Shown: positions 16,456 through 61,988 of the stretch, piece by piece | How positions within the stretch are numbered: position 1 is the first letter of the stretch | Layout of the letters: each line of letters opens with the position of its first letter | Origin: Spisula solida | Lineage: Eukaryota > Mollusca > Bivalvia > Venerida > Mactridae | Direction: 5' to 3' | Assembly (NCBI GenBank): GCA_947247005.1 | Contig: OX365950.1 | Coordinates: 12,474,720-12,538,719 of the forward strand | Length of the DNA stretch: 64,000 bases | Notes under the pieces: generated by a model | Seen by the model: only the letters and a program-made list of their open reading frames with translations | The model's database searches: none | What the model was told of the DNA's origin: nothing | Translations under genes and position numbers: made by a program

Positions 16456-19400
16456 CACCCTGTCTAAGCGTAGAATCGAGCGTGCGGATCGATTACGACG
16501 GAGCAGTGCGGAAAATGCGGATTGTTTTTATGGTCAAGGTAATGTTTTGCTTCATCATTCTTTTAATTTAAAAACTACGAGATTGAGAATTGGCCAAGGA
16601 TGACCTACAATAAATGCCCCTCGATCGTGATGCATTGAAATATTCATAGCACTTTTAGTTTTTTCTAACATTCGGGAAAAACGCACCGAAACTCGCCTGT
16701 TTTGCTACCGTCCCATAGTTTTCTCGTCGTAAATGGTTCAAATATACGTTAATCATCCTTATTTTCTCGTCAAACATGTACAATACATCATATTTAACAA
16801 ATACCTCACCGCTCAAGCGGTTTAAAACTAATTGAAACCTCGAAAACCCAGCCGTCAACGAGACATGAATTTTTACGACAGAGGGGAAGAATCGGTGCGT
16901 ATTTTCGAGCGGCCGGATTTTACGGAAAACGTTGTTTACACGGCTTTTGTAGGTCGGCCCGTTGACAAAAATCATTTTGTAACTGTTTATATGATATTAG
17001 TTGGTGTTTCTTAAATGAGTACCGCCAATTTCACACTAAATCGCATTTTTGTAACGATGTATTCCTTCTCGAGCGCATGTCTATCGTCTAGGTACAATGT
17101 GCTTCACGATGGTGGTGATGGAGAACATGTCGTACGACTGAACGTCTACGTAGCAGTTATGAGTGGACGTCCTGATTGGGGAAGGTCTCTGGTGGTCCGA
17201 AACCGTGGACACTTTATCCACAATGCGTGTTCGCTACATATATTTCGGTGCACAGCAAAGTCTGCCAACGTCAGTATGACGCACATCAGCTTCACGCTTA
17301 TAACAAGTGGTCAGTTGATCATGCAGTGGTTATATTATCAATATTTACGTATTCGATATATATATTGTTACAAAATGGACTGTTATCTACAGTCTCTGGC
17401 TACAGTTATCTCCTTCGAGCTATATAGCTGCGCATTTAAGAAAATAATCCCCTATAATAGTTGATGTGTAAAAACCTTAGCTGAGGGTAACACTGTTGGC
17501 TAAAAAATTGTGCTTGTTGTTAGATCATTGGTTCGCAGTAGCTGGTTGTGAGACTAGGATTTTGACTTGTCAACATTTTCTTGAAAATATCTTACGAACA
17601 TAAAAACGTTACAGAGTGTTTCGTCGTAGAGAAAAACTCAACCTGTGCTAATTGGTGCATTATGTACATTCTATGTGAGACAGGAGAAATTCGCTATTTA
17701 AAATAGTGCAAGATGTGAGAGCTAATGGACTTTTGAACGGACATTTTTTAGTTAGACGATCTATCTTTTAATACACCATTGTTGGATCCAAAATGCTTTC
17801 CAAATGTGTTGAGACCAAAAAGAGAATTTATCGGTGACAGACAGTTGGTCGTTTATCAAGGATTCAACGTCTTTGGTGGGATTTCAGGCACTTTGTAAAT
17901 ATGCAAGTTGTGAAATCATTGCAGTTTGGCCAGGTAATCGGCGAAACTAAAGCAGATTCACACACATGTTATCACCGGAGGTGCGCATAAATATAAGGAC
18001 TTGCCTCGGCTAGGTGCCATTAAACATAAATAAAGAATTAAACTATTTACCTTCAAAAACCACCGTTTGTTTACCTGTTCGGCCTGATGTGAGAGCAAAA
18101 TCGTTACGTCACAAGAAACATGATTGGCCATCGTGCATATCCCCTTCTCTTCGCTTATACCCTCGTAACATGGATAGCAGCAGAAATGATGTGTCGAGAG
18201 TGATTAATACCAGTTGGAAAACTTACTTTACAGTCGACCTTATATCGTTTAGTACGAGGGTGTTCAAAAAGAAATACAACTCCATGCATAGATTTGTATT
18301 TTAGGGATTTCGCGCGTCAAACAGTTAAGTATATGACTAAAATACCACTTGTTGAATTTCAATGATGTGTTTACACTCGATCTGAGGGCACACAGTGAAA
18401 AAATCCCTGAATTTGAAGGCAATCATTGCGTAAAGCACCGAAGTGGGTTTATGTTAAAGCTGTGCCTTCAGCTAGGGTATTTACACATCAACTATTATAG
18501 GGGATAGTATAGCTCGGAGGAAATAACTGTAGCCAGTGACTAAAGATAACAGTCCACTTTGTAACAATATCGAATACGTAAACATTGATAATATAACCAC
18601 TGCATGGTCGACTGACCACTTGTCATATGCGTGAAGCTGGTGTGCGTCATACTGACGTTGGCAGACTGCTGTGCACCGAATTATATGTAGTGAACACGCA
18701 TTGTGTATAAAGTGTCCACGGTTTAGGACAACCAAAGACCTTCCTCAAACAGGACGTCCACTCATAACTGCTACGTAGACGTTCAGTCGTACGACAAGTT
18801 CTCCATCACCACCATCGTGAAGCACATTCTGCCTAAACGATAGACATGCGCTCACGAAGGAATACATCGTTACAAGAATGAGATTTAGTGTGAATTTGGC
18901 TGTACTCATTTAGGAAACACCAACTAATATCATATAAACAGTTACAAAATGATTTTTGTCCACGGGCCGACCTTCAAAGGCCGTGTAAACAACGTTTTCC
19001 GTAAACTCCGGCCGCTCGAAAATACGCCCCGATCCTTCCCCTCTGTCGTAAAAATTCACGTCTCGTTGACGGTCGGGTTTTCGAGGTTTCAATTAGTTGT
19101 AACCGCTTGAGCGGTGAGTTTTTTTTGTTAAATATAATGTATTGTATATGTTTGAAGAGGAAATAAGGAATATTAAATATATTTGAACCATTTACGACGA
19201 GAAAACTACGGGACGGTAGCAAAACAGGCGAGTTTCGGTGCGTTTTTCCCGAATGTTAGAAAAAAATACAAATGCTACGAATATTTCAATGCATCACGAT
19301 CGAGGGGCATTTATTGTAGGTCATCCTCGGCCAATTCTCAATCTCGTAGTTTTTAAATTAAAAGAATGATGAAGCAAAACATTACCTTGACCATAAAAAC

Positions 19401-19468
19401 AATCCGCATTTTCCGCACTGCTCCGTCGTAATCGACCCGCACGCTCGATTCTACGCTTAGACAGGGTG
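16456..19468. mobile_element. 3-kb element with 1-kb terminal inverted repeats
   Basis: The left arm (16456 to about 17485) and right arm (about 18465 to 19468) are inverted copies with high similarity over about 1 kb, both starting CACCCTGTCTAAGCG at the outside. The flanks read AATTA on each side (16451-16455 and 19469-19473), which looks like a 5-bp target duplication. The roughly 980-bp centre has no recognisable transposase. Short open frames inside the arms (for example 17015-17464) appear in mirrored, diverged form in the other arm and have no known motif. Foldback-type or other long-TIR element; superfamily unknown. Confidence 0.8.
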
Positions 19469-21882: not shown

Positions 21883-22281
21883 ATGGCGTTGCTAAGTACT
21901 CCGTACGTCCAAATACACCACATAAATGGAAATCACTGGATTGTTTCAGCCGCAAGTAATCCACCAGGACCGATTGAAGTTTATGACTCAATGTCGAAGA
22001 AGAAACTTAGTGATATAACTGCGCAGTACATGAGACAATATCATGGCATCGATTGTAGAATAGAAATTATGAACATTCAACAGCAAGCTGGAACCAAGGA
22101 TTGTGGATTGTTTGCTTTAGCAAATGCAACCACTCTTTGCGTGGGTGCTGACCCAACATCACTTGTCTACCACCAGACTGAGATGAGAGACCACTTTAGT
22201 GGATGCCTTGACCAGAAGACTATGACACTGTTTCCACACGATGTTAAGGGATGCAAGCGTAGGGTGAAACATATAATGTGA
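21883..22281 (+). CDS. Compact Ulp1/SENP-like cysteine protease (C48 type)
   Basis: 132 residues, one exon. An in-frame TGA at 21865 with no acceptor between it and the ATG fixes the start. Visible catalytic features are His18 in GNHWIV, Asp35 in VYDSM, Gln66-68 in NIQQQAG, and Cys74 in TKDCGLFALA. This is the His-Asp-Gln-Cys order and spacing of Ulp1-type desumoylating/deubiquitinating proteases. The domain normally spans about 200 residues, so the N-terminal third before the catalytic His is missing or replaced by a short lead. The protein may still fold, or it may be a transposon-borne remnant, since Ulp1-like domains are frequent cargo of animal and plant DNA transposons. A TATA box lies upstream and AATAAA 55 bp downstream, so it looks like a self-contained transcription unit. 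Substrate is unknown. Confidence 0.75.
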   Translation: MALLSTPYVQIHHINGNHWIVSAASNPPGPIEVYDSMSKKKLSDITAQYMRQYHGIDCRIEIMNIQQQAGTKDCGLFALANATTLCVGADPTSLVYHQTEMRDHFSGCLDQKTMTLFPHDVKGCKRRVKHIM

Positions 22282-23223: not shown

Positions 23224-23660
23224 TGTACATGTTCAATGTTTACAAATGATACAAAATAAAAGACATACATGTATATTTGTTTGATTTATTTATTTTACAG
23301 AGCTGGGCATTGTTGTCGATGTGTCTGTATTTATAGCTACTCAGTCACATATAATAACGATAGCTTTACATTAATATGTATTTACCGGATAATACTAATT
23401 CACTTAGGGACTCAAAATGGCGAAAACAACGACGACGTGGAAACATCTTACACAACGACGTAACTGACGTACAACTGCTCGTTAGGTTACAAGTAACAAT
23501 ATTTGTACGATATTGAACTAGAAGATTAACTTGGACTTCTTCAAGTAACAAACAATTCCACAATGTTAAGAACATGGCCGCAGCCATTGTCATGAATCAT
23601 ACACAGACCGCCCGGATGACTATTCAATGCGATGTCATACCGGATGGGTATTATTAGTTA

Positions 23661-23792
23661 CATGGTCATCTAGTGACCTGGTACGGGATGATACATGGTC
23701 AGTAAAATTCGTACCTGGCGAGGCGAAGCCGAGTCATGGTACGAATTTTACTGACCATGTATCATCCCGTACCAGGTCACTAGATGACCATG
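23661..23792. repeat. Perfect 55-bp inverted repeat with GC-rich loop
   Basis: The arms from CATGGTCATCTAGTGACCTG through AAATTCGTACC (55 bp) and their complement match without a mismatch. The 22-bp loop contains CGAGGCGAAGCCGAG, itself partly self-complementary. Confidence 0.9.
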
Positions 23793-24638
23793 CAACGAAT
23801 TTACCCTACCGATGACCCTTTATAATGGATAACCACACTAAATTAAAGACCACCTCTATAGAAAGAGCGCTGAAATACGTACATTGGTCTTTTTTAAACC
23901 TCAATATAAAGACCAACTCAAAATTAGACCAGTTGAAAATGGCATGACTCTCAAGGGTTGACTAATTATTAAGATGTTATTTCAACTACACCCTATCCCA
24001 GACCGAGAGCCGCCCCAGACCAAAAGGGAGCAAACTCGTACAGAACGTACATTAGTCAAGGGAGACAACAATGTAAACACTGTGTACATAAAATATTCAT
24101 TGACAATCTACACCGTGTTTTGTTGTCTAAATATACTTCAAAATAAATAAAATCGGCGACATACCTACAAAAGCATTTCATAAAAGGCTTTCATTTTGTT
24201 TAGACATAATTTTAACCACCTCGGACTTCATCAAGTTCATGACATTCGTCTTGAATATTTCCTCCACTCTGCGGTCTTTCCGCTCGGAAAATCGAAGATA
24301 TTGCAAAGCGACACGGTATGCAGTTAGATGCTGGCCTAATCCATAATCACAAGACAGCAACAAACATCATACAATTGTGCTTGCATATAATCCAAAAGTG
24401 CAACATGATTTCGCGACGAGTTTTTAAATTTACGATCCACGTCGACATGACTGCTCAACTCGGTGGACGATCAATCCCGAATCCATCCAGCGTCAAAGCC
24501 TGTGAAAATGATACCCATTGATCACTAGGCGTCTGATTTTCATCTTAATTTAACTCGTATAGTTGAGCACACGATGTTTTTGTTCGAGCGACCTTGACTG
24601 ATGTAAACAGTACAGCTAGAGTTTCTTCCCTTAGCGCT

Positions 24639-55800: not shown

Positions 55801-58800
55801 CTGAACAAGTTCAATTATGGTCATTTTTTACTTGACCTTTGAGATATTGACATAATTGTGTCCCATGACACCCTCTAATGATGGTGTGCCAAGTCATTAA
55901 AAAATCATTTGATGTATGGCGAAGTTACAGTCTGGACAAATTTCGGGACAGACATCAACCTACGGACGACCACAAGAGTGACTCCTTCATAATTCATGAA
56001 GAAACAAGACTGCGTTCAATAAACGCTTATGCCCCCTGTGGAAGCCTTGTCCATAAATAAGTCTAAGTCCAAAATTAGGTCAAGGTGAAGGTCAAAATGG
56101 GGTAAGGTGATACAGGCATGTGGAGAGTGTTCATACACAACATCCATGCAAGTATGAAAGCTTTGTAGCAAGCCATATTAATGCTAGAAGAAACGGTCAA
56201 TTTGGGTTAACCAGGACGGACGGACGGACGGACGGACGGACGAACGGACGGACGGACGGACAGGTGAATCACTATATGCCCCCCATCTATCGATAGGGGG
56301 GCATAAAAATAAACCTAACAGTAAGTACTTCATTATCCAAGTACTCAAAAATAAACCAAAGAGCATGATTCTGTTCTCATTTTAGAGCATTTTCTAAACC
56401 TTATTACATAATTACTGTATAATGTCACTAAGCTCAGTTTTCCAGAAGAATGGCTCATGTATTATACATATTTACATATGTCACGGTCTGAACCTGTTCA
56501 CAGTATGGGTGAGGGAGTGTGTAGGCAGCCGGCTAGCTCAGTCGGTAGAGCATTCGCCCTGTAAGCGAAGGGTCCCGGGTTCGAGCCCCGGTCTGGTTGC
56601 ACATTTTTCTCACCCTGTGACATTTGGCGCCCAACGGGGGACCGTGGCATGGCAGTCAGGTTGCTTCACAGCTCCTGTGCTTGAAATTATTTCTACTCTC
56701 TGAAATTCGGGACGCATTTCCATTTCAGAGGGGGAATATGTCACGGTCTGAACCTGTTCACAGTATGGGTGAGGGAGTGTGTAGGCAGCCGGCTAGCTCA
56801 GTCGGTAGAGCATTCGCCCTGTAAGCGAAGGGTCCCGGGTTCGAGCCCCGGTCTGGTTGCACATTTTTCTCACCCTGTGACACATACAATTATAGTACAC
56901 AGTGGCAAACAAAAGAAATATACAAGTGTTTTAAACTTGCACTCACAATAATAAATTGTTCAATACAGTCTGGAGAGGTTAATTGATACCGGTTTTTTTT
57001 CCTTTTTCTTTTTATCAGGTTTAATACCTTTTCTCAGTAACTTTTTTGTTATATACGGCTGCCATTCAGTGTATCAGCTTTCCTGGACTGTATCCTTACC
57101 AGTACTAACTAACCCTTCCACAGGGAGCCAGTCACGTTCCCACATGTGGAGGAAAATTGACTATGTTGTCAAATGTTCATGAAAGGGTATGACCTGTCTC
57201 AACCAGGAATTGAACGGGATACAAATCCAGCATACAAACCAAACAGTCACAGCAATTAGTATAATATACAAATACCTGTAGATGAGAGGGTCCGTCTGAA
57301 GCTGCCTCTTACAGTCACCGGCTCATATTGTACATTTTCCCGGGGATCTATCGCTCCTCGACGAAAATTACATTCAAAACACAACCGATTCTCCTCTGTA
57401 AGATAAATGGAAAACATTTTAAATCAATCTCTCAAAAGTAGAAAAAAACAAAATTTATAAAATTATACAAATTCAATTTGATGATTTGTATGGAATTGAG
57501 TTGTTGTATGGTGATTGTTGATCGGAGGGTGTAATTGTCTGGAGGTAATTGTTACAATCAATTTCCTATGAGATTGACATTTAAACATACTCCTTGATAC
57601 ATCAATACAGACATTCATCAAAGTAACAGCTGCTGCCTTGTGATAATTATATCAAGTTGAACTTCAAAAGCAGCTCTTTCTTGGTTAATATATTCAATTC
57701 AATTAGCAAGGCAACATTGGGCAGAGCATAAATTCTGGTTTAAAGGGATTATTATAATAATCATAGCAATTTCCCTGAATCAGTTGCAAAGTCATTGACC
57801 TTTTAGTACTAGTAAATGTCAAATAATAACGAAACAACAAATTTAACTGCATATCAAAGGGGTTCCATTTGACTCTGAAGTAAGGGTTTTGACCCCTAAC
57901 ATTTTAAAAAGCCATATTTTAACCCTCTAGTTATTGGTTGGAAAGGTGATTTTCTCTTAAAATCATAGGTATTTAGTCTATAAAATGTTAAAATTTAGTC
58001 TAAAGTATCAAAATGACCCTTTAGATTCAGAAGCTAATAGAACCCATGTATAAGCAAACATACCGGTACATATGTGGCAATAATAAGCATTACATTATAC
58101 TCCTGATGACAACAAGTGACCCGAGTATTTGAGTACTTGGTCATTGAACTGATTATCGAATAGTACAATCAACACTCGGGTACTCAGAAAATGACCAGTC
58201 AGCCTTTTATCTGAACAAGGCTTACCCCAGGCCATTTTAGCACCCAAATCCCGAGGCACTTCAATTTTTTAAATATTTACTTCCTTACGTTATACATAAC
58301 ATGACACAGGAAATACATCATTACGTACTAAAGTGGGAGTAACATAATCTATATATAACTAAAATGGTGTTTTATCACATAAACATGTCCCTCACAAAGG
58401 GTGGTAACTCAAGCGTAAACATGGGTAATCATGAGCAGATTGTTTTTTTATAAATAAACTTATAACGCCTCCCTGGTATAATGCTGGATGAGATTATAGA
58501 CAGCATATCTACATACAACAAGAGCACAATAAGGAAGGTCTCACTATATATTGGATATTTCACCATACATCCAACATGAACGCTCACTCTGCTAAATCTT
58601 CACAGACAAACAATATTGATTTGTTTAAATAGAAGTGAATTAGGTACCGTAAAATCCTTGGTTTTTCACAGGTATTAAATTTTGCGGATTTCGGTGAAAT
58701 GGTAATTTGGTGGTTTGTTAAATATTGAATGAAGGACTTCTTGTTACATACTTTTGAGGTTAAGTATTTAAGGGGATTGAATTTCGTGATCTAGCGCATC

Positions 58801-61800
58801 CACAATATTAAAGAAAATTTATCCTTTGCGAATATCAATAATTTAACAGTATGCTAGTTCACATAATGTCAGTTTATTCCAGAACTTAAGCTACAATTAA
58901 TCTGTTTATTCCAGAAAATAACACTCCTATGCTGTGTACGTGACTAATGAAATGCGCCATAAGCAAGGCCCTAACTTGAGGACACATAATTATAATGATC
59001 AAAATAGGCAGCTGGCAGATTATTGTTTGTAGTATCGTTTGTGGACCGCTGAAACCATAATAAAAAGATTTTCTCTAAGCAAAGGTCTTAAGAACTTCTT
59101 AAGAGTCAGATGAGTGCTTTACGCTCATCAAACTCAGACTGAATACATTACAATGTCACCCAGTATCGATCATGGCCTAGATTTTACAGAAACAAATAAT
59201 GTGGAACAGTTTCCTAAAGAGTAAGACATTACGTAAAACTGTGAGCTCTGGAGTGTGACCAAAGATATGATTTGGCCAGAAACCCCAGCTGACACAGTAT
59301 CAAACCTAACACTCTGTACAATACCTAACACTCAACACTGAAGCGAACACTCAGTACTACACCTAACACTCAACACTGAACTGAGCACTCAGTACTACAC
59401 CTAACGCTCAACACTGAACCGAACACTCAGTACTATACCTAACACTCAACACTAAACCAAACACTCGGTATTACACCTAACGCTCAACACTGAACCGAAC
59501 ACTCAGTACTACACCTAACACTCAACACTGAACTGAACACTCAGTACTACACCTTACACTCAGTACAACACCTAACACTCAGTACTGCACCTAACAGTCA
59601 ATATTGTACCTAACACTCAGTGCTACGCTTAACACTCAGCACTGTACTGAACACTCAGTACTGCACATTACTCTCAGTACTGCACCTAACACTCAGTACT
59701 GTACCTAACACTCAGTACTGCACCTAACACTCAGTACTGCACCTAACACTCAGTACTACACCTAACACTCAGTACTGCACCTAACACTCAGTACTGCACC
59801 TAACACTCAGTACTACACCTAACACTCAGTACTGTATCTAACACTCAGTACTGTACCTAACACTCAGTACTACACCTAACACTCAGTACTGCACCTAACA
59901 CTCAGTACTACACCTAACACTCAGTACTACACCTAACACTCAGTACTACACCTAACACTCAGTACAGTACCTCACACTCAGTACTACACCTTACACTCAG
60001 TACTGTACCTAACACTCAGTACTGTACCTAACACTCACTACTACACCTAACACTCAATACTGTACCTAACACTCAGTACTGCACCTAACACTAAGTACTG
60101 TATCTAACACTCAGTACTGTACCTAACACTCACTACTACACCTAACACTCGGAACTTTACCTAACACTCAGTACAGTACCTCACACTCAGTACTGTACCT
60201 AACACTCACTACTACACCTAACACTAAGGACTGTATCTAACACTCAGTACTGTACCTAACACTCACTACTACACCTAACACTCGGAACTGTACCTAACAC
60301 TCAGTACTGCACCTAACACTCAGTACTGTACCTAACACTCACTACTACACCTAACACTCAGTACTGTACCTAACACTCACTACTACACCTAACACTAAGT
60401 ACTGTATCTAACACTCAGTACTGTACCTAACACTCAATACTGTACCTAACACTCAGTACTGCACCTAACACTAAGTACTGTACCTAACACTCAGTACTGT
60501 ACCTAACACTCAGTACTGTACCTAACACTCAGTACTGTACCTAACACTCAGTACTGTACCTTACACTCTGTACTGTACCTAACACTCACTACTACACCTA
60601 ACACTCAGTACTGTACCTAACACACTGTACCTAACACTCAGTACTGTACCTAACACTCTGTACCGCACCTAATACTCAGTACTGCACCTAACACTCAGTA
60701 CTGTACCTAACACTCAGTACTGTACCTAAAACTCAGTACTACACCTAACACTCAGTACTGTACCTAACACACTGTACCTAACACTCAGTACTGCACCTAA
60801 CACTAAGTACTGTACCTAACACTCAGTACTGTACCTAACACTCAGTACTGTACCTAACACTCAGTACTGTACCTAACACTCTGTACTGTACCTAACACTC
60901 ACTACTGTACCTAACACTCACTACTACACCTAACACTCAGTACTGTACCTAACACACTGTACCTAACACTCAGTACTGTACCTAACACTCTGTACCGCAC
61001 CTAATACTCAGTACTGCACCTAACACTCAGTACTGTACCTAACACTCAGTACTGTACCTAAAACTCAGTACTACACCTAACACTCAGTACTGTACCTAAC
61101 ACACTGTACCTAACACTCAGTACAGTACCTAACACTCTGTACCGCACCTAATACTCAGTACTGCACCTAACACTCAGTACTACACCTACCACTCAGTACT
61201 GTACCTAACACTTAGTACTGTACCTAACACTCAGTACTGTACCTAACACTCAGTACTACACCTACCACTCAGTACTGCACCTAACACTCAGTACTACACC
61301 TACCACTCAGTACAGTACCTAACACTCAGTACAGTACCTCACACTCAGTACTGTACCTAACACTCAGTACTGTACCTAACACTCAGTACTGTACCTAACA
61401 CTCAGTACTGTACCTAACACTCAGTACTGTACATAACACTCAGTACTGCACCTAACACTAAGTACTGTACCTAACACTCAGTACTGTACCTAACACTCAG
61501 TACTGTACCTAACACTCAGTACTGTACATAACACTCAGTACTACACCTACCACTCAGTACAGTACCTAACACTCAGTACAGTACCTCACACTCAGTACTG
61601 TACCTAACACTCAGTACCGCACCTAACACTAAGTACTGTACCTAACACTCAGTACTGTACCTAACACTCAGTACTGTACCTAACACTCAGTACTGTACAT
61701 AACACTCAGTACTGCACCTAACACTAAGTACTGTACCTAACACTCAGTACTGTACCTAACACTCAGTACTGTACCTAACACTCAGTACTACACCTAACAC

Positions 61801-61988
61801 TCGGTCCCTTACACTCAGTACTGCACCTAACACTCAGTACTGCACATAACACACAGTCAAATCTTACCATTTTCATATTCAGGCACGCCATTTCCTGAGA
61901 CGACTCTATAATTGTATAGAATATTATGCAGGTTAGCAGACTCTGTCTTGCCAACATAACTGTATATTGATCTGTTTACCATGTCAGA
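40868..61988 (-). CDS. CLOCK: CLOCK circadian transcription factor (10 exons; 5' end outside window)
   Basis: CLOCK is a bHLH-PAS factor that pairs with BMAL1/CYCLE on E-boxes to drive period and cryptochrome genes. Ten exons, all with GT-AG borders and matching phases, join into 594 residues plus stop. About residues 1-110 are the C-terminal part of PAS-A, including [12 protein letters not shown], which resembles the vertebrate LRGTIDPKEP. Residues 115-225 are PAS-B and PAC, with [34 protein letters not shown] and [14 protein letters not shown] nearly as in human CLOCK. A 22-Gln tract follows in exon 7, then the helix with [13 protein letters not shown] in exon 9, and a 15-Gln tract with the C terminus QKFSN in exon 10. 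The bHLH exons are not found up to 64000. NPAS2 is the alternative vertebrate paralogue name; invertebrates usually have one gene. Total coding length would be typical for CLOCK once the N terminus is added. Confidence 0.93.
41173..41854 (-). other. CLOCK intron 9 (last)
   Basis: 682 bp, AT-rich, no repeat recognised. Confidence 0.7.
41855..42038 (-). CDS. CLOCK: CLOCK exon: conserved coiled-coil segment (mouse exon-19 equivalent)
   Basis: 184 bp, encoding [20 protein letters not shown] and [19 protein letters not shown]. It corresponds to the segment whose loss gives the mouse Clock-delta19 mutant and which binds CIPC and affects transactivation (established knowledge). Acceptor CTATTACAG, donor GTAAGTAAAC. 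Confidence 0.94.
42039..42685 (-). other. CLOCK intron 8
   Basis: 647 bp with two related blocks of about 170 bp (AATTCAAGGGCCATAATCAA and GAAAACTGTTTGAATTAGAG at about 42340-42415 and 42500-42570). They are probably fragments of one dispersed repeat. Confidence 0.6.
42686..42781 (-). CDS. CLOCK: CLOCK exon with NAGNAG acceptor
   Basis: 96 bp, phase 0 on both sides, encoding [16 protein letters not shown] and [10 protein letters not shown]. The acceptor reads TATTACAGCAG, so splicing at either AG would include or skip one Gln. The exon can be skipped without a frameshift. Confidence 0.85.
42872..43075 (-). mobile_element. tRNA-derived SINE in CLOCK intron 7
   Basis: Minus-strand head GATAGCCTGGTGGTAGAGC (A box), then GGGTTCAATTCC (B box), then a body ending in CATCAGGAATGAGGTGTC. 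The tail motif recurs near 19950 and 50600. It lies in the same orientation as CLOCK. Confidence 0.65.
43279..43485. mobile_element. MITE, family A copy 3 (degenerate)
   Basis: CTGTAAAATCAC end, internal AAATCCCTTTTCGTGGGGTC and ACAAAACATGGAAGG as in copy 1; the right end is ATGATTCTACAT. The target TA is no longer clear on the left. Confidence 0.6.
43601..43980 (-). CDS. CLOCK: CLOCK exon: first polyglutamine tract
   Basis: 380 bp. [12 protein letters not shown] is followed by 22 glutamines encoded by mixed CAA and CAG codons, then a Gln/Ser/Thr/Pro-rich activation-type region. The mixed codons should limit slippage compared with a pure CAG run. Other frames over the tract give long Asn, Ser, Leu or Val runs and are artefacts. 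Donor GTAAATATT after CTCCCG, phase 0. Confidence 0.9.
44143..44194. repeat. Hairpin in CLOCK intron 6
   Basis: TGTAATTAT and CAGTCTGAGTGC pair with GCACTCAGACTC and AATAATTACA around loop TGAGTGTG. Confidence 0.7.
44596..44833. mobile_element. MITE, family B copy 2
   Basis: Ends TACTGTTTTATCAAAGCACT and AGTGCTTTGATAAAATAGTA are inverted over about 29 bp with CCGTAA/TTACGG inside. Lies in CLOCK intron 6. Confidence 0.75.
45380..45597. repeat. 41-bp minisatellite, about 5 copies
   Basis: Unit TTGGTCATTTTTGTGATAAT then ATAAAATTTGAGACATAATA, AT-rich, in CLOCK intron 6. Confidence 0.85.
45987..46141 (-). CDS. CLOCK: CLOCK exon: post-PAS segment
   Basis: 155 bp. [20 protein letters not shown] corresponds to [20 protein letters not shown] in vertebrates; the rest is Ser/Pro rich and probably disordered. 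Acceptor CATTTACAG, donor GTAAGATT. Confidence 0.93.
46556..46850 (+). mobile_element. tRNA-derived SINE in CLOCK intron 5
   Basis: Head GGGGAGCAGTGGCCTAGAGT (A box) and CCCAGGTTCGATCCCC (B box), then CTCTGAGCAAAGAATAACCC shared with the damaged copy at 20155-20412. Opposite orientation to CLOCK. The 3' boundary is approximate and comes within about 20-30 bp of the neighbouring exon's donor. Confidence 0.7.
46868..47015 (-). CDS. CLOCK: CLOCK exon: end of PAS-B and PAC
   Basis: 148 bp, encoding [20 protein letters not shown] and [18 protein letters not shown]. Acceptor TTCTTTTAG, donor GTATAGT. A SINE ends close to its donor in the intron. Confidence 0.96.
47821..48634. mobile_element. Dispersed element, GGGCC...GTGAGCT family, copy 2, with internal 145-bp tandem units
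   Basis: Starts AAGAGGGCCAAAAGGGCCAT, AGGTCGCTCACCTGT and ends GTGACAGGTGAGCTAAAAA. A 145-bp unit (GACCTTGTGACCTAGTTTTT onward) repeats four times at 47972, 48117, 48262 and 48407. Near the right end, a GGACGGACGAAGAGTGATCA block is shared with copy 1. Lies in CLOCK intron 4. Confidence 0.75.
49240..49346 (-). CDS. CLOCK: CLOCK exon: PAS-B core
   Basis: 107 bp, encoding [20 protein letters not shown] and [14 protein letters not shown]. Acceptor TATGTTTTCAG, donor GTAAGTATT. Confidence 0.96.
49477..49652. mobile_element. MITE, family C copy 1
   Basis: Ends GGGGATCCACT and AAATGGAACCCC are inverted. Internal GGTCAAAATGTGACTTTT and TCAAAACCCCTACT recur inverted at 57859-58045. CLOCK intron 3. 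Confidence 0.6.
51415..52371. mobile_element. Non-autonomous DNA transposon with 6-bp target duplication, copy 1
   Basis: 957 bp. Ends CATACATGTCATA and ATGGCATGCATG, flanked on both sides by ATACAA (51409-51414, 52372-52377). Strongly similar along its length to the copy at 54539. No transposase frame. CLOCK intron 3. Confidence 0.85.
52633..52876. mobile_element. 244-bp MITE
   Basis: Ends AGTCCCCTACCGGTTTT and AAAACCGGTAGGGGACT are perfect 17-bp inverted repeats, with an internal GACGGACGGACAG stretch. No clear target duplication. CLOCK intron 3. Confidence 0.8.
53970..54200. mobile_element. MITE, family B copy 3
   Basis: Ends TACTGTTTTATTCAAGCACT and AGTGCTTTGATAATCAGTA, with ACGGAAATCATAAA and TTTATGATTTATGT inside. 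CLOCK intron 3, 78 bp from the next exon. Confidence 0.75.
54278..54446 (-). CDS. CLOCK: CLOCK exon: PAS-A/PAS-B link and start of PAS-B
   Basis: 169 bp, encoding [19 protein letters not shown] and [17 protein letters not shown]. The second motif is almost invariant in CLOCK/NPAS2. Acceptor TTTGTTTCAG, donor GTGAGTAG. Confidence 0.95.
54539..55532. mobile_element. Non-autonomous DNA transposon with 6-bp target duplication, copy 2
   Basis: 994 bp. Perfect 13-bp inverted ends CATACATGCCATA and TATGGCATGTATG, flanked by AATATA on both sides (54533-54538, 55533-55538). CLOCK intron 2, about 3 kb from copy 1 in the same orientation. Confidence 0.88.
56001..56308. mobile_element. Dispersed element with GGAC microsatellite, copy 1
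   Basis: Starts CAAGACTGCGTTCAATAAAC, GCTTATGCCCCCTGTGGAAG and ends ATCGATAGGGGGGCATAAAA after a (GGAC)n run at 56215-56262. The head and tail recur at 62701-63000. Confidence 0.65.
56479..56622 (+). repeat. TRIM 5' LTR
   Basis: 144 bp, TG...CA ends. GGGTGAG before and CTCACCC after the tRNA-like part can pair, holding it on a stem. Confidence 0.88.
56525..56600 (+). tRNA. tRNA-like sequence inside the 5' LTR (Thr-UGU-like)
   Basis: A box TAGCTCAGTCGGTAGAGC and B box GGGTTCGAGCC. The anticodon arm is TTCGC/CCTGTAA/GCGAA and the T arm CCGGG/CCCGG. The loop would place UGU as anticodon, but position 33 is C instead of the universal U and the acceptor stem has one mismatch, so decoding is doubtful. 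T-run ACATTTTT follows. Probably a pol III promoter captured by the LTR. Confidence 0.6.
56739..56882 (+). repeat. TRIM 3' LTR
   Basis: Identical to the 5' LTR over 144 bp. Confidence 0.88.
56785..56860 (+). tRNA. tRNA-like sequence inside the 3' LTR
   Basis: Exact copy of 56525-56600, with the same C33 and acceptor mismatch, again followed by ACATTTTT. Confidence 0.6.
57276..57395 (-). CDS. CLOCK: CLOCK exon: end of PAS-A
   Basis: 120 bp, encoding [19 protein letters not shown] and [10 protein letters not shown]. Acceptor ATCTTACAG, donor GTATTTG. Phases fit both neighbours. Confidence 0.88.
57859..58045. mobile_element. MITE, family C copy 2
   Basis: Ends GGGGTTCCATTTGACTC and CTAATAGAACCC; inverted relative to the copy at 49477. 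CLOCK intron 1 of the window. Confidence 0.6.
58647..58849. mobile_element. MITE, family A copy 4
   Basis: CCGTAAAATCC and ATTTAACAG ends flanked by TA; internal GGTATTAAATTTTGCGGATT and GATTGAATTTCGTG match copy 1. Confidence 0.6.
59303..61855. repeat. 19-bp minisatellite, about 130 copies, with 38-bp dimers at one end
   Basis: Unit CTAACACTCAGTACTGTAC with TGTAC/TGCAC/TACAC variants. The first 300 bp are organised as 38-bp dimers (ACTCAACACTGAACCGAACA). At 2.5 kb it is the largest array here. It lies inside a CLOCK intron and ends about 13 bp from a splice donor. Confidence 0.93.
61868..61988 (-). CDS. CLOCK: CLOCK exon (first in window): PAS-A part
   Basis: 121 bp, reading [20 protein letters not shown] and onwards, equivalent to SDLVDQSIFNFI in vertebrate CLOCK. 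Acceptor TTTTCAG and donor GTAAGAT. The 19-bp minisatellite starts about 13 bp beyond the donor and a 38-bp repeat ends about 45 bp before the acceptor. The exon starts in phase 0 and ends in phase 1. Confidence 0.85.

What the first reader, a model, noticed from the sequence alone, without database searches (positions are those of the whole stretch)
56479..56882. Animal TRIM retrotransposon whose LTRs carry a tRNA-like pol III promoter
Seen directly: two identical 144-bp repeats with TG...CA ends, a tRNA-Lys-type primer binding site, a polypurine tract and CATA duplications, in only 404 bp. Each LTR contains a near-complete cloverleaf with A and B boxes. Plant Cassandra TRIMs carry 5S rRNA promoters in their LTRs (established knowledge); an animal counterpart built on a tRNA would be a parallel solution. 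GGGTGAG/CTCACCC pairing around the tRNA suggests a structured transcript. The C33 change argues against a decoding tRNA and for promoter use.
Basis: partly seen in the sequence, partly recalled or inferred. Interest (0 to 1): 0.88.

Follow-up and report, generated by a model that had tools for sequence, protein, structure and literature searches.

The report
tRNA-carrying mini-retrotransposon in surf clam
A 404-base jumping element in what appears to be a surf clam genome carries a tRNA-like start signal in both of its ends, a design already described under the name Helenus, and a few of its copies are fused to larger retrotransposons in a way that hints at who moves it.

Summary
The genome held for the window matches the published Spisula solida assembly. 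It has 103 exact LTR/primer-site junctions (reversed-pattern control 0). Of 34 distinct places with both outer ends complete, 20 have perfect 4-bp target duplications and 8 one mismatch. This is a real, recently mobile TRIM family, but not a new kind: Kojima (2024, PMC10886601) described TRIMs with tRNA-like LTRs as 'Helenus'. New relative to what I read there: a family in Heteroconchia (his bivalve Helenus are all Pteriomorphia), and three places where the TRIM is joined to Ty3/Gypsy elements. One such composite has a clean CTAG/CTAG duplication around the whole. A second has CTTT/CTTT, but in a locally repetitive target. The third has none. TRIM and Gypsy also share a ~40-nt module before the purine tract. 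This points to integration in trans by Gypsy machinery. Pol III transcription remains untested.

The parts
56475..56478 (.). left target-site duplication CATA
56479..56622 (+). 5' LTR, 144 bp, TGTCAC...GTGACA
   Evidence: identical to 56739-56882
56507..56513 (+). GGGTGAG, 5' arm of the stem that encloses the tRNA-like part
   Evidence: pair probability 0.98-1.0
56527..56600 (+). tRNA-like sequence (Thr-TGT by anticodon, C33)
   Evidence: ARAGORN, Rfam RF00005 51.5 bits
56534..56545 (+). box A, TAGCTCAGTCGG
   Evidence: fits TRGCY...YGG given for Helenus in PMC10886601
56578..56588 (+). box B, GGTTCGAGCCC
   Evidence: GGTTC as in PMC10886601
56604..56608 (+). T5, possible pol III terminator
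   Evidence: T5 in 104 of 117 LTR copies, T4 in 3, T1 in 1, 9 not parsed
56609..56615 (+). CTCACCC, 3' arm of the enclosing stem
56623..56738 (+). internal region, 116 bp, too short for gag or pol
56625..56636 (+). [quoted passage not shown]
56691..56738 (+). pre-PPT stretch that resembles two Ty3/Gypsy families of the same genome
56727..56738 (+). polypurine tract AGAGGGGGAATA
56739..56882 (+). 3' LTR, 144 bp
56787..56860 (+). tRNA-like sequence of the 3' LTR
56864..56868 (+). T5 of the 3' LTR, presumed end of the element RNA
56883..56886 (.). right target-site duplication CATA

Best explanation
The 404-bp sequence is an intact, recently inserted copy of a non-autonomous LTR retrotransposon, a TRIM of the published Helenus type, in a clam whose assembly matches Spisula solida. 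Shown: LTR/primer-site/purine-tract anatomy, many copies, 4-bp target duplications, and places where TRIM and Ty3/Gypsy sequence are joined. Inferred: RNA polymerase III starts at the tRNA-like promoter in the 5' LTR. Transcripts that read through the T5 in the 5' LTR and stop at the T5 in the 3' LTR form the genomic RNA, with the tRNA-like part as the repeated (R) region. tRNA-Lys primes first-strand synthesis. A Ty3/Gypsy particle supplies reverse transcriptase and integrase in trans.
For: Anatomy. 103 exact LTR/PBS junctions, reversed-pattern control 0. 55 matches to the whole element with only 40 of 1443 candidates scored. Perfect 4-bp TSD at 20 of 34 distinct complete-ended places, one mismatch at 8, more at 6; chance rate from mismatched pairs 9 of 1122. 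Composite 1 (L011+L045, contig C12): TRIM LTR-INT-LTR-PBS joined to Gypsy pol and a Gypsy 3' LTR, flanked CTAG/CTAG with no further likeness of the flanks. Composite 2 (L047+L046+L043, C16): Gypsy with both LTRs joined to a TRIM array, flanked CTTT/CTTT. Pfam, above the cut-offs: reverse transcriptase (L011, L046), RNase H (L011, L043), integrase (L043) and PNMA-type gag (L046). The 48 nt before the 3' LTR of TRIM-A score higher against both Gypsies than against any of 4000 background windows. The last 12 LTR bases of TRIM and one Gypsy agree at 11, which alone is not significant (E 0.45). Helenus description in PMC10886601.
Against: No transcription data. The T5 lies downstream of the promoter in the 5' LTR too, so most pol III transcripts should stop before the internal region; read-through is required. 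Composite 2 sits in an imperfect local repeat (flanks alike over about 20 nt), so its CTTT match is weaker evidence than it looks. Composite 3 (L007/L019) has no matching duplication (TTTA against TTAA). The sequences at the primer site of the Gypsies (TTGGTGGCCCAG in L047; TGGTTCCCAAC beside L007, not checked against an intact copy) differ from the TRIM's Lys site, so they are not shown to be its usual helper. Integrase matches in L045 are below Pfam's cut-off. The LTR copies are too alike (mean about 98% per position) to show selection on the boxes.
Confidence: 0.86

Rival explanations
1. [quoted passage not shown]
For: A T5 directly downstream of the tRNA-like part would stop pol III inside the 5' LTR. 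The predicted RNA prefers a rod to a cloverleaf. Nucleotide 33 is C.
Against: Only 48 bp lie upstream of the tRNA-like part, and I see no TATA box on reading (no promoter scan run). Boxes A and B fit the Helenus pattern, which PMC10886601 reports as kept in most Helenus LTRs, with examples from fungi, wasps, fish and molluscs. Cassandra, the 5S counterpart, carries conserved pol III promoters and terminators (PMC7215508 passages).
Confidence: 0.15
2. The TRIM-Gypsy composites are neighbouring or nested insertions later joined by deletion, not joint integration.
For: TRIM copies are numerous, and a carrier repeat shows that copies suffer small deletions after insertion. Composite 2 lies in a local repeat in which two insertions could have met. 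Composite 3 has no duplication.
Against: Composite 1 has one clean CTAG/CTAG duplication with a TRIM end on one side and a Gypsy end on the other. In composite 2, taking out the composite and one CTTT leaves a regular 17-18-nt repeat (inference). The joints lie at an LTR end (L043) and directly after the primer site (L011), where reverse transcription products end.
Confidence: 0.28
3. The LTR tRNA is a working tRNA-Thr gene amplified for decoding.
For: ARAGORN and Rfam score it as a tRNA. PMC10886601 says seven bivalve families can encode tRNA-Thr.
Against: C33 in 97 of 117 LTR copies, A in 1, 19 not parsed. Lower score than the real tRNA-Thr, and the folded LTR RNA favours a rod. PMC10886601 judges a functional tRNA unlikely.
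Confidence: 0.04
4. Head-to-tail tRNA duplication or satellite, not a retroelement.
For: Tandem arrays with a 260-bp unit exist.
Against: Dispersed copies with TG...CA ends, PBS, PPT and 4-bp duplications at different sites.
Confidence: 0.01

Closest known systems
Helenus (Kojima 2024, PMC10886601), animal branch
   Same: TRIM with a tRNA-like sequence with boxes A and B in each LTR, PBS and PPT, 4-bp duplications, Lys-type primer site among those used in bivalves, Gypsy dependence proposed, 311-1263 bp long; tandem arrays reported for one family.
   Different: Host matches Spisula solida (Heteroconchia), while the paper lists bivalve Helenus only from Pteriomorphia. Several internal regions (116, about 107, 245 nt) under one LTR, head-to-head copies, and joints with Gypsy elements are shown here. 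Sequence relation to a named Helenus family was not tested.
Cassandra (plants)
   Same: TRIM with a small-RNA-gene pol III promoter in the LTRs; tandem LTR-internal arrays (PMC7215508, passages).
   Different: 5S rRNA instead of tRNA; plants; partner called unknown in that paper.
Ajax (nemerteans)
   Same: TRIM with a presumed pol III promoter in the LTR.
   Different: Partial 5S rRNA, 5-bp duplications (PMC10886601).
biv-TRIM (Satovic et al. 2019, PMC6934838; abstract and passages seen)
   Same: Short TRIM in bivalves with tandem arrays.
   Different: No clear PBS; its conserved TGATCCCAAAGGAC segment is absent here.
Ty3/Gypsy elements of the same genome (L043/L046/L047; L011/L045/L019)
   Same: Pre-PPT stretch, purine tract, last LTR bases, 4-bp repeats around composites.
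   Different: gag or pol frames present, LTRs of about 510 and 644 bp (the 644-bp one without a close match to the TRIM LTR), different sequence at the primer site as far as seen.

Membership tests
Helenus (TRIM with tRNA-like LTR) | two LTRs, under 1000 bp, no coding | tested here: met
   404 bp, 144-bp identical LTRs, 116-bp internal region
Helenus (TRIM with tRNA-like LTR) | tRNA-derived sequence with boxes A (TRGCY, YGG) and B (GGTTC) in the LTR | tested here: met
Helenus (TRIM with tRNA-like LTR) | PBS and PPT at the ends of the internal region | tested here: met
   the host tRNA-Lys gene itself was not retrieved (searches not answered)
Helenus (TRIM with tRNA-like LTR) | 4-bp target duplications (animal branch) | tested here: met
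   20 of 34 perfect, 8 of 34 with one mismatch, 6 of 34 worse; mismatched pairs 9 of 1122
Helenus (TRIM with tRNA-like LTR) | mobilised by Gypsy | tested here: inconclusive
   composites and pre-PPT likeness speak for it; the primer site is not shared with the Gypsies seen, and only one composite has a clean duplication
Helenus (TRIM with tRNA-like LTR) | pol III transcription | not testable with these tools
   no RNA data; also unproven in PMC10886601
Helenus (TRIM with tRNA-like LTR) | sequence relation to published Helenus consensus | not tested
   Repbase and the paper's supplements were not available
Cassandra / Ajax | 5S rRNA-derived sequence in the LTR | tested here: not met
   Rfam finds only tRNA in the LTRs
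biv-TRIM | conserved TGATCCCAAAGGAC internal segment | tested here: not met
   absent
Functional tRNA gene | U33 and a normal cloverleaf | tested here: not met
   C33; rod preferred over cloverleaf in silico

The most novel reading that the evidence does not exclude
The genome preserves fossils of trans-mobilisation of a TRIM with a pol III-type promoter. TRIM and Ty3/Gypsy cDNAs were joined (end to end, or by a jump directly after the primer site) and inserted in one concerted event by a Gypsy integrase. This would name the helper class directly and show that a helper need not share the TRIM's primer site.
Probability: 0.5. Interest if true: 0.6.

Novelty: new member of a known kind. Interest (0 to 1): 0.42.

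Why it matters
Helenus is known, so the headline design is not new. What is useful: (1) a family outside Pteriomorphia, which either pushes the bivalve origin back before the Pteriomorphia/Heteroconchia split or argues for a separate birth or transfer; (2) physical evidence, through composites, bearing on which enzymes insert such TRIMs. The partner of Cassandra is called unknown in PMC7215508, and for animal Helenus PMC10886601 infers Gypsy from primer-site likeness and duplication length. (3) tRNA gene counts in this genome may be inflated by LTR copies (inference).

Tried and rejected
Rejected: a functional tRNA gene (C33, rod fold); tRNA tandem duplication (dispersed copies with duplications); Cassandra/Ajax (no 5S); biv-TRIM (motif absent). 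The tRNA-like part as its own primer was considered: the primer site is Lys-type, the LTR sequence ends ...TGGTTGCA and does not complement it on reading; not computed.

Led nowhere: exact pattern scans of viral contigs and prokaryote genomes found 0. Two protein searches for the host's identity found nothing at E 0.001. One search (pre-PPT pattern) gave 0, but my pattern was wrong by one base, so it says nothing. Selection on boxes or T5 could not be tested because the copies are too alike. Primer-site variants (24, 13 and 12 of 66 primer-site-bearing junctions, 17 others once each) would fit copying of the tRNA primer, but the copies are not independent (carrier repeat), so I give this little weight. 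Solo LTRs were not tested: my queries favoured copies with an internal region, and the one single LTR (L075) is flanked by primer sites. Composites were found by listing frames in five loci (L007, L011, L019, L041, L043) and by a short RT-motif scan of all fetched loci (hits in L011 and L046 only); others may be missed.

The chance figure (9e-5 for at least 2 of 3; 1.9e-4 with the empirical rate) treats the flanks as independent and should not be leaned on.

Full report
WHAT IS THERE. The finding is exact. Two identical 144-bp direct repeats (56479-56622 and 56739-56882) flank 116 bp. The repeats begin TG and end CA, with inverted tips TGTCAC/GTGACA. CATA stands on both outer sides. Two bases after the first repeat comes TGGCGCCCAACG, which is the complement of the 3' end of animal tRNA-Lys (recalled; the host gene was not retrieved). 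The internal part ends in AGAGGGGGAATA. Each repeat holds a tRNA-like sequence (51.5 bits in Rfam) with box A and box B. Its anticodon reads TGT (Thr) and nucleotide 33 is C. A T5 follows the tRNA-like part in each repeat.

STRUCTURE OF A TRANSCRIPT. GGGTGAG and CTCACCC on either side of the tRNA-like part pair with probability 0.98-1.0. LTR RNA 56500-56622 folds better than 200 of 200 dinucleotide shuffles (z -4.07); the bare tRNA-like part does not (91 of 200 shuffles fold as well). The best fold is a long rod (-55.7 kcal/mol); the best fold that keeps the cloverleaf is -46.7. The flank pairing alone was matched by 86 of 5000 mono-shuffles and 4 of 5000 random window positions, so it is suggestive only.

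HOST. The genome that holds the window has 931,988,947 bases in 36 contigs. One contig, C17, is 42,436,359 bases long, exactly the N90 scaffold length of the Spisula solida assembly (PMC11101916, passages). The other contig lengths seen fit its chromosome table to about 0.02 Mb. The published total is 932,108,243 bases in 38 scaffolds, so the held copy differs slightly. I take the host to be Spisula solida (Venerida, Heteroconchia); this is an inference.

COPIES. A search with the whole element gave 55 matches, with only 40 of 1443 candidates scored. The exact pattern 'LTR end + primer site' occurs 103 times; the reversed pattern occurs 0 times. I examined 30 of these 103 (loci L048-L077; some overlap the first set) and 40 loci from the first search. 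Counting places with distinct flanks in all fetched loci except L045-L047, there are 49; 34 have both outer LTR ends complete. Of these 34, 20 have a perfect 4-bp duplication, 8 have one mismatch and 6 have more. Left and right 4-mers from different places match in 9 of 1122 pairs. The 34 include TRIM parts of composites and arrays, which cannot show a duplication of their own, and one duplicated region (L037/L040). Of 32 two-LTR elements, 4 have identical LTRs by the script's strict count, the window's copy among them. The family is young: 117 LTR copies average about 98% agreement per position.

VARIANTS. Under the same LTR there are internal regions of 116 nt (here), about 107 nt (L010, L017, L050, L051, L065-L068 and others) and 245 nt (L054/L055, same flanks). 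Tandem arrays LTR-INT-LTR-INT-LTR (such as L015, L044, L058) and head-to-head forms (L010, L031, L075) occur. In 14 of 40 loci the element, single or double, sits at one and the same place inside a larger repeat. The flanks fetched there (up to about 2 kb on each side) are about 98-99.7% alike, apart from inserts or breaks in L020, L022 and L024 and one 93% piece. In these copies the last four LTR bases are missing; a loss of 7 bases between two TGT copies, removing one copy of a TGTA duplication, would explain it (inference).

WHO MOVES IT. Three places join the TRIM to Ty3/Gypsy sequence. (a) L011+L045: TRIM LTR-INT-LTR, then 15 nt of primer site, then a snap-back stretch of Gypsy pol, more of pol, and a Gypsy 3' LTR ending CCCTGTTACA; an insert of about 1.2 kb interrupts the Gypsy 3' part. 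CTAG stands on both outer sides, with no further likeness of the flanks. (b) L047+L046+L043: a Gypsy with both LTRs (the 5' one interrupted), whose 3' LTR end ...GGTAACA runs straight into TRIM base 6, followed by a TRIM array. CTTT stands on both outer sides. But here the two flanks also resemble each other over about 20 nt (CTTTGTTGTTTAATGT-ACTT against CTTTGTTCTTTAATGTGACTT). The site looks like an imperfect 17-18-nt tandem repeat. Taking out the composite and one CTTT leaves that repeat regular, which fits a 4-bp duplication, but two insertions into neighbouring units followed by a deletion are harder to exclude. (c) L007 and L019, about 9 kb apart, face each other, with the 3' part of Gypsy (a) beside L019, 99.6% alike over 1012 nt. 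I did not fetch the middle, and the outer bases (TTTA, TTAA) do not match.

Pfam finds reverse transcriptase, RNase H, integrase and PNMA-type gag above its cut-offs across L011, L043 and L046; the integrase match in L045 is below its cut-off. The 48 nt before the 3' LTR of TRIM-A score higher against both Gypsies than against any of 4000 background windows. TRIM-B does so against the L043 Gypsy (0 of 4000), and TRIM-C at 1 of 4000; B and C against the other Gypsy are weaker (27 and 83 of 4000). The last 12 LTR bases of TRIM and Gypsy (a) agree at 11 (E 0.45 alone). Against this: the sequence after the Gypsy 5' LTR in L047 is TTGGTGGCCCAG, and beside L007 it is TGGTTCCCAAC, not the TRIM's Lys site. 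So TRIM and Gypsy ends seem to have been inserted together at least once, but these Gypsies are not shown to be the usual helper.

MODEL. Shown: anatomy, dispersal, 4-bp duplications, composites. Inferred: pol III starts a little upstream of the tRNA-like part, some transcripts pass the T5 of the 5' LTR and end at the T5 of the 3' LTR. That gives U3 = first ~40 bp, R = the tRNA-like part to T5, U5 = the last 14 bp. The T5 in the 5' LTR is a cost of this design: most transcripts should be short. In a read-through RNA the 5' leader could pair with U5 next to the primer site (inference).

WHAT IS KNOWN. Kojima 2024 (PMC10886601; I read the abstract, the text up to the start of Methods, Results, Discussion, and the figure legends and tables) names such TRIMs Helenus. 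They are found in fungi, six animal phyla and one plant, with 4-bp duplications in animals, Lys among the bivalve primers, and seven bivalve families that can encode tRNA-Thr. Bivalve families are listed only from Pteriomorphia. A full-text search for 'Helenus' with 'retrotransposon' found two papers; the second is a meeting report (passages). A Helenus family in Heteroconchia, and Gypsy composites, were not in the parts I read; my searches do not prove that they are unpublished. Relation to a named Repbase family was not tested.

VERDICT. The added value lies in the host lineage and in the composites.

Noticed in passing
L009, L013, L014, L016, L018, L020, L022-L026, L028, L041, L042: A larger repeat (about 2 kb aligned on each side, limited by what was fetched; no frame of 90 aa outside the TRIM in L041) carries one or two TRIM units at the same internal place in 14 loci. 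Its ends and nature are unknown.
   Followed up: partly
L010, L031, L075: Head-to-head TRIM copies joined at or near the primer site, purine tract or LTR ends, as if formed from reverse-transcription intermediates.
   Followed up: partly
L011, L071, L074, L075: LTR plus about 15 nt of primer site followed directly by unrelated or inverted sequence, near the place where plus-strand strong-stop DNA would end.
   Followed up: partly
L024:1165-2004: Sequence inserted near the end of the internal region of a carrier-embedded TRIM copy, with inverted ends (CAGTCATGGCGAAAG ... CTTTCGCCATGACTG), probably a DNA transposon.
   Followed up: no
16456-17424 and 18508-19468: Large inverted repeat in four pieces (arms 90-98% complementary, about 1.1 kb between the innermost arms), likely a foldback DNA transposon.
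   Followed up: no
21883-22281: Open frame with an Ulp1-type peptidase domain (Peptidase_C48), possibly from a DNA transposon.
   Followed up: partly
23653-23800: Near-perfect palindrome scoring 76 and 73 bits to Rfam MIR1883 on the two strands, below the gathering score of 128; probably a MITE.
   Followed up: no
59304-61857: 19-bp tandem repeat, about 136 copies.
   Followed up: no
2314-2386: Ordinary tRNA-Thr (AGT) gene, minus strand.
   Followed up: yes
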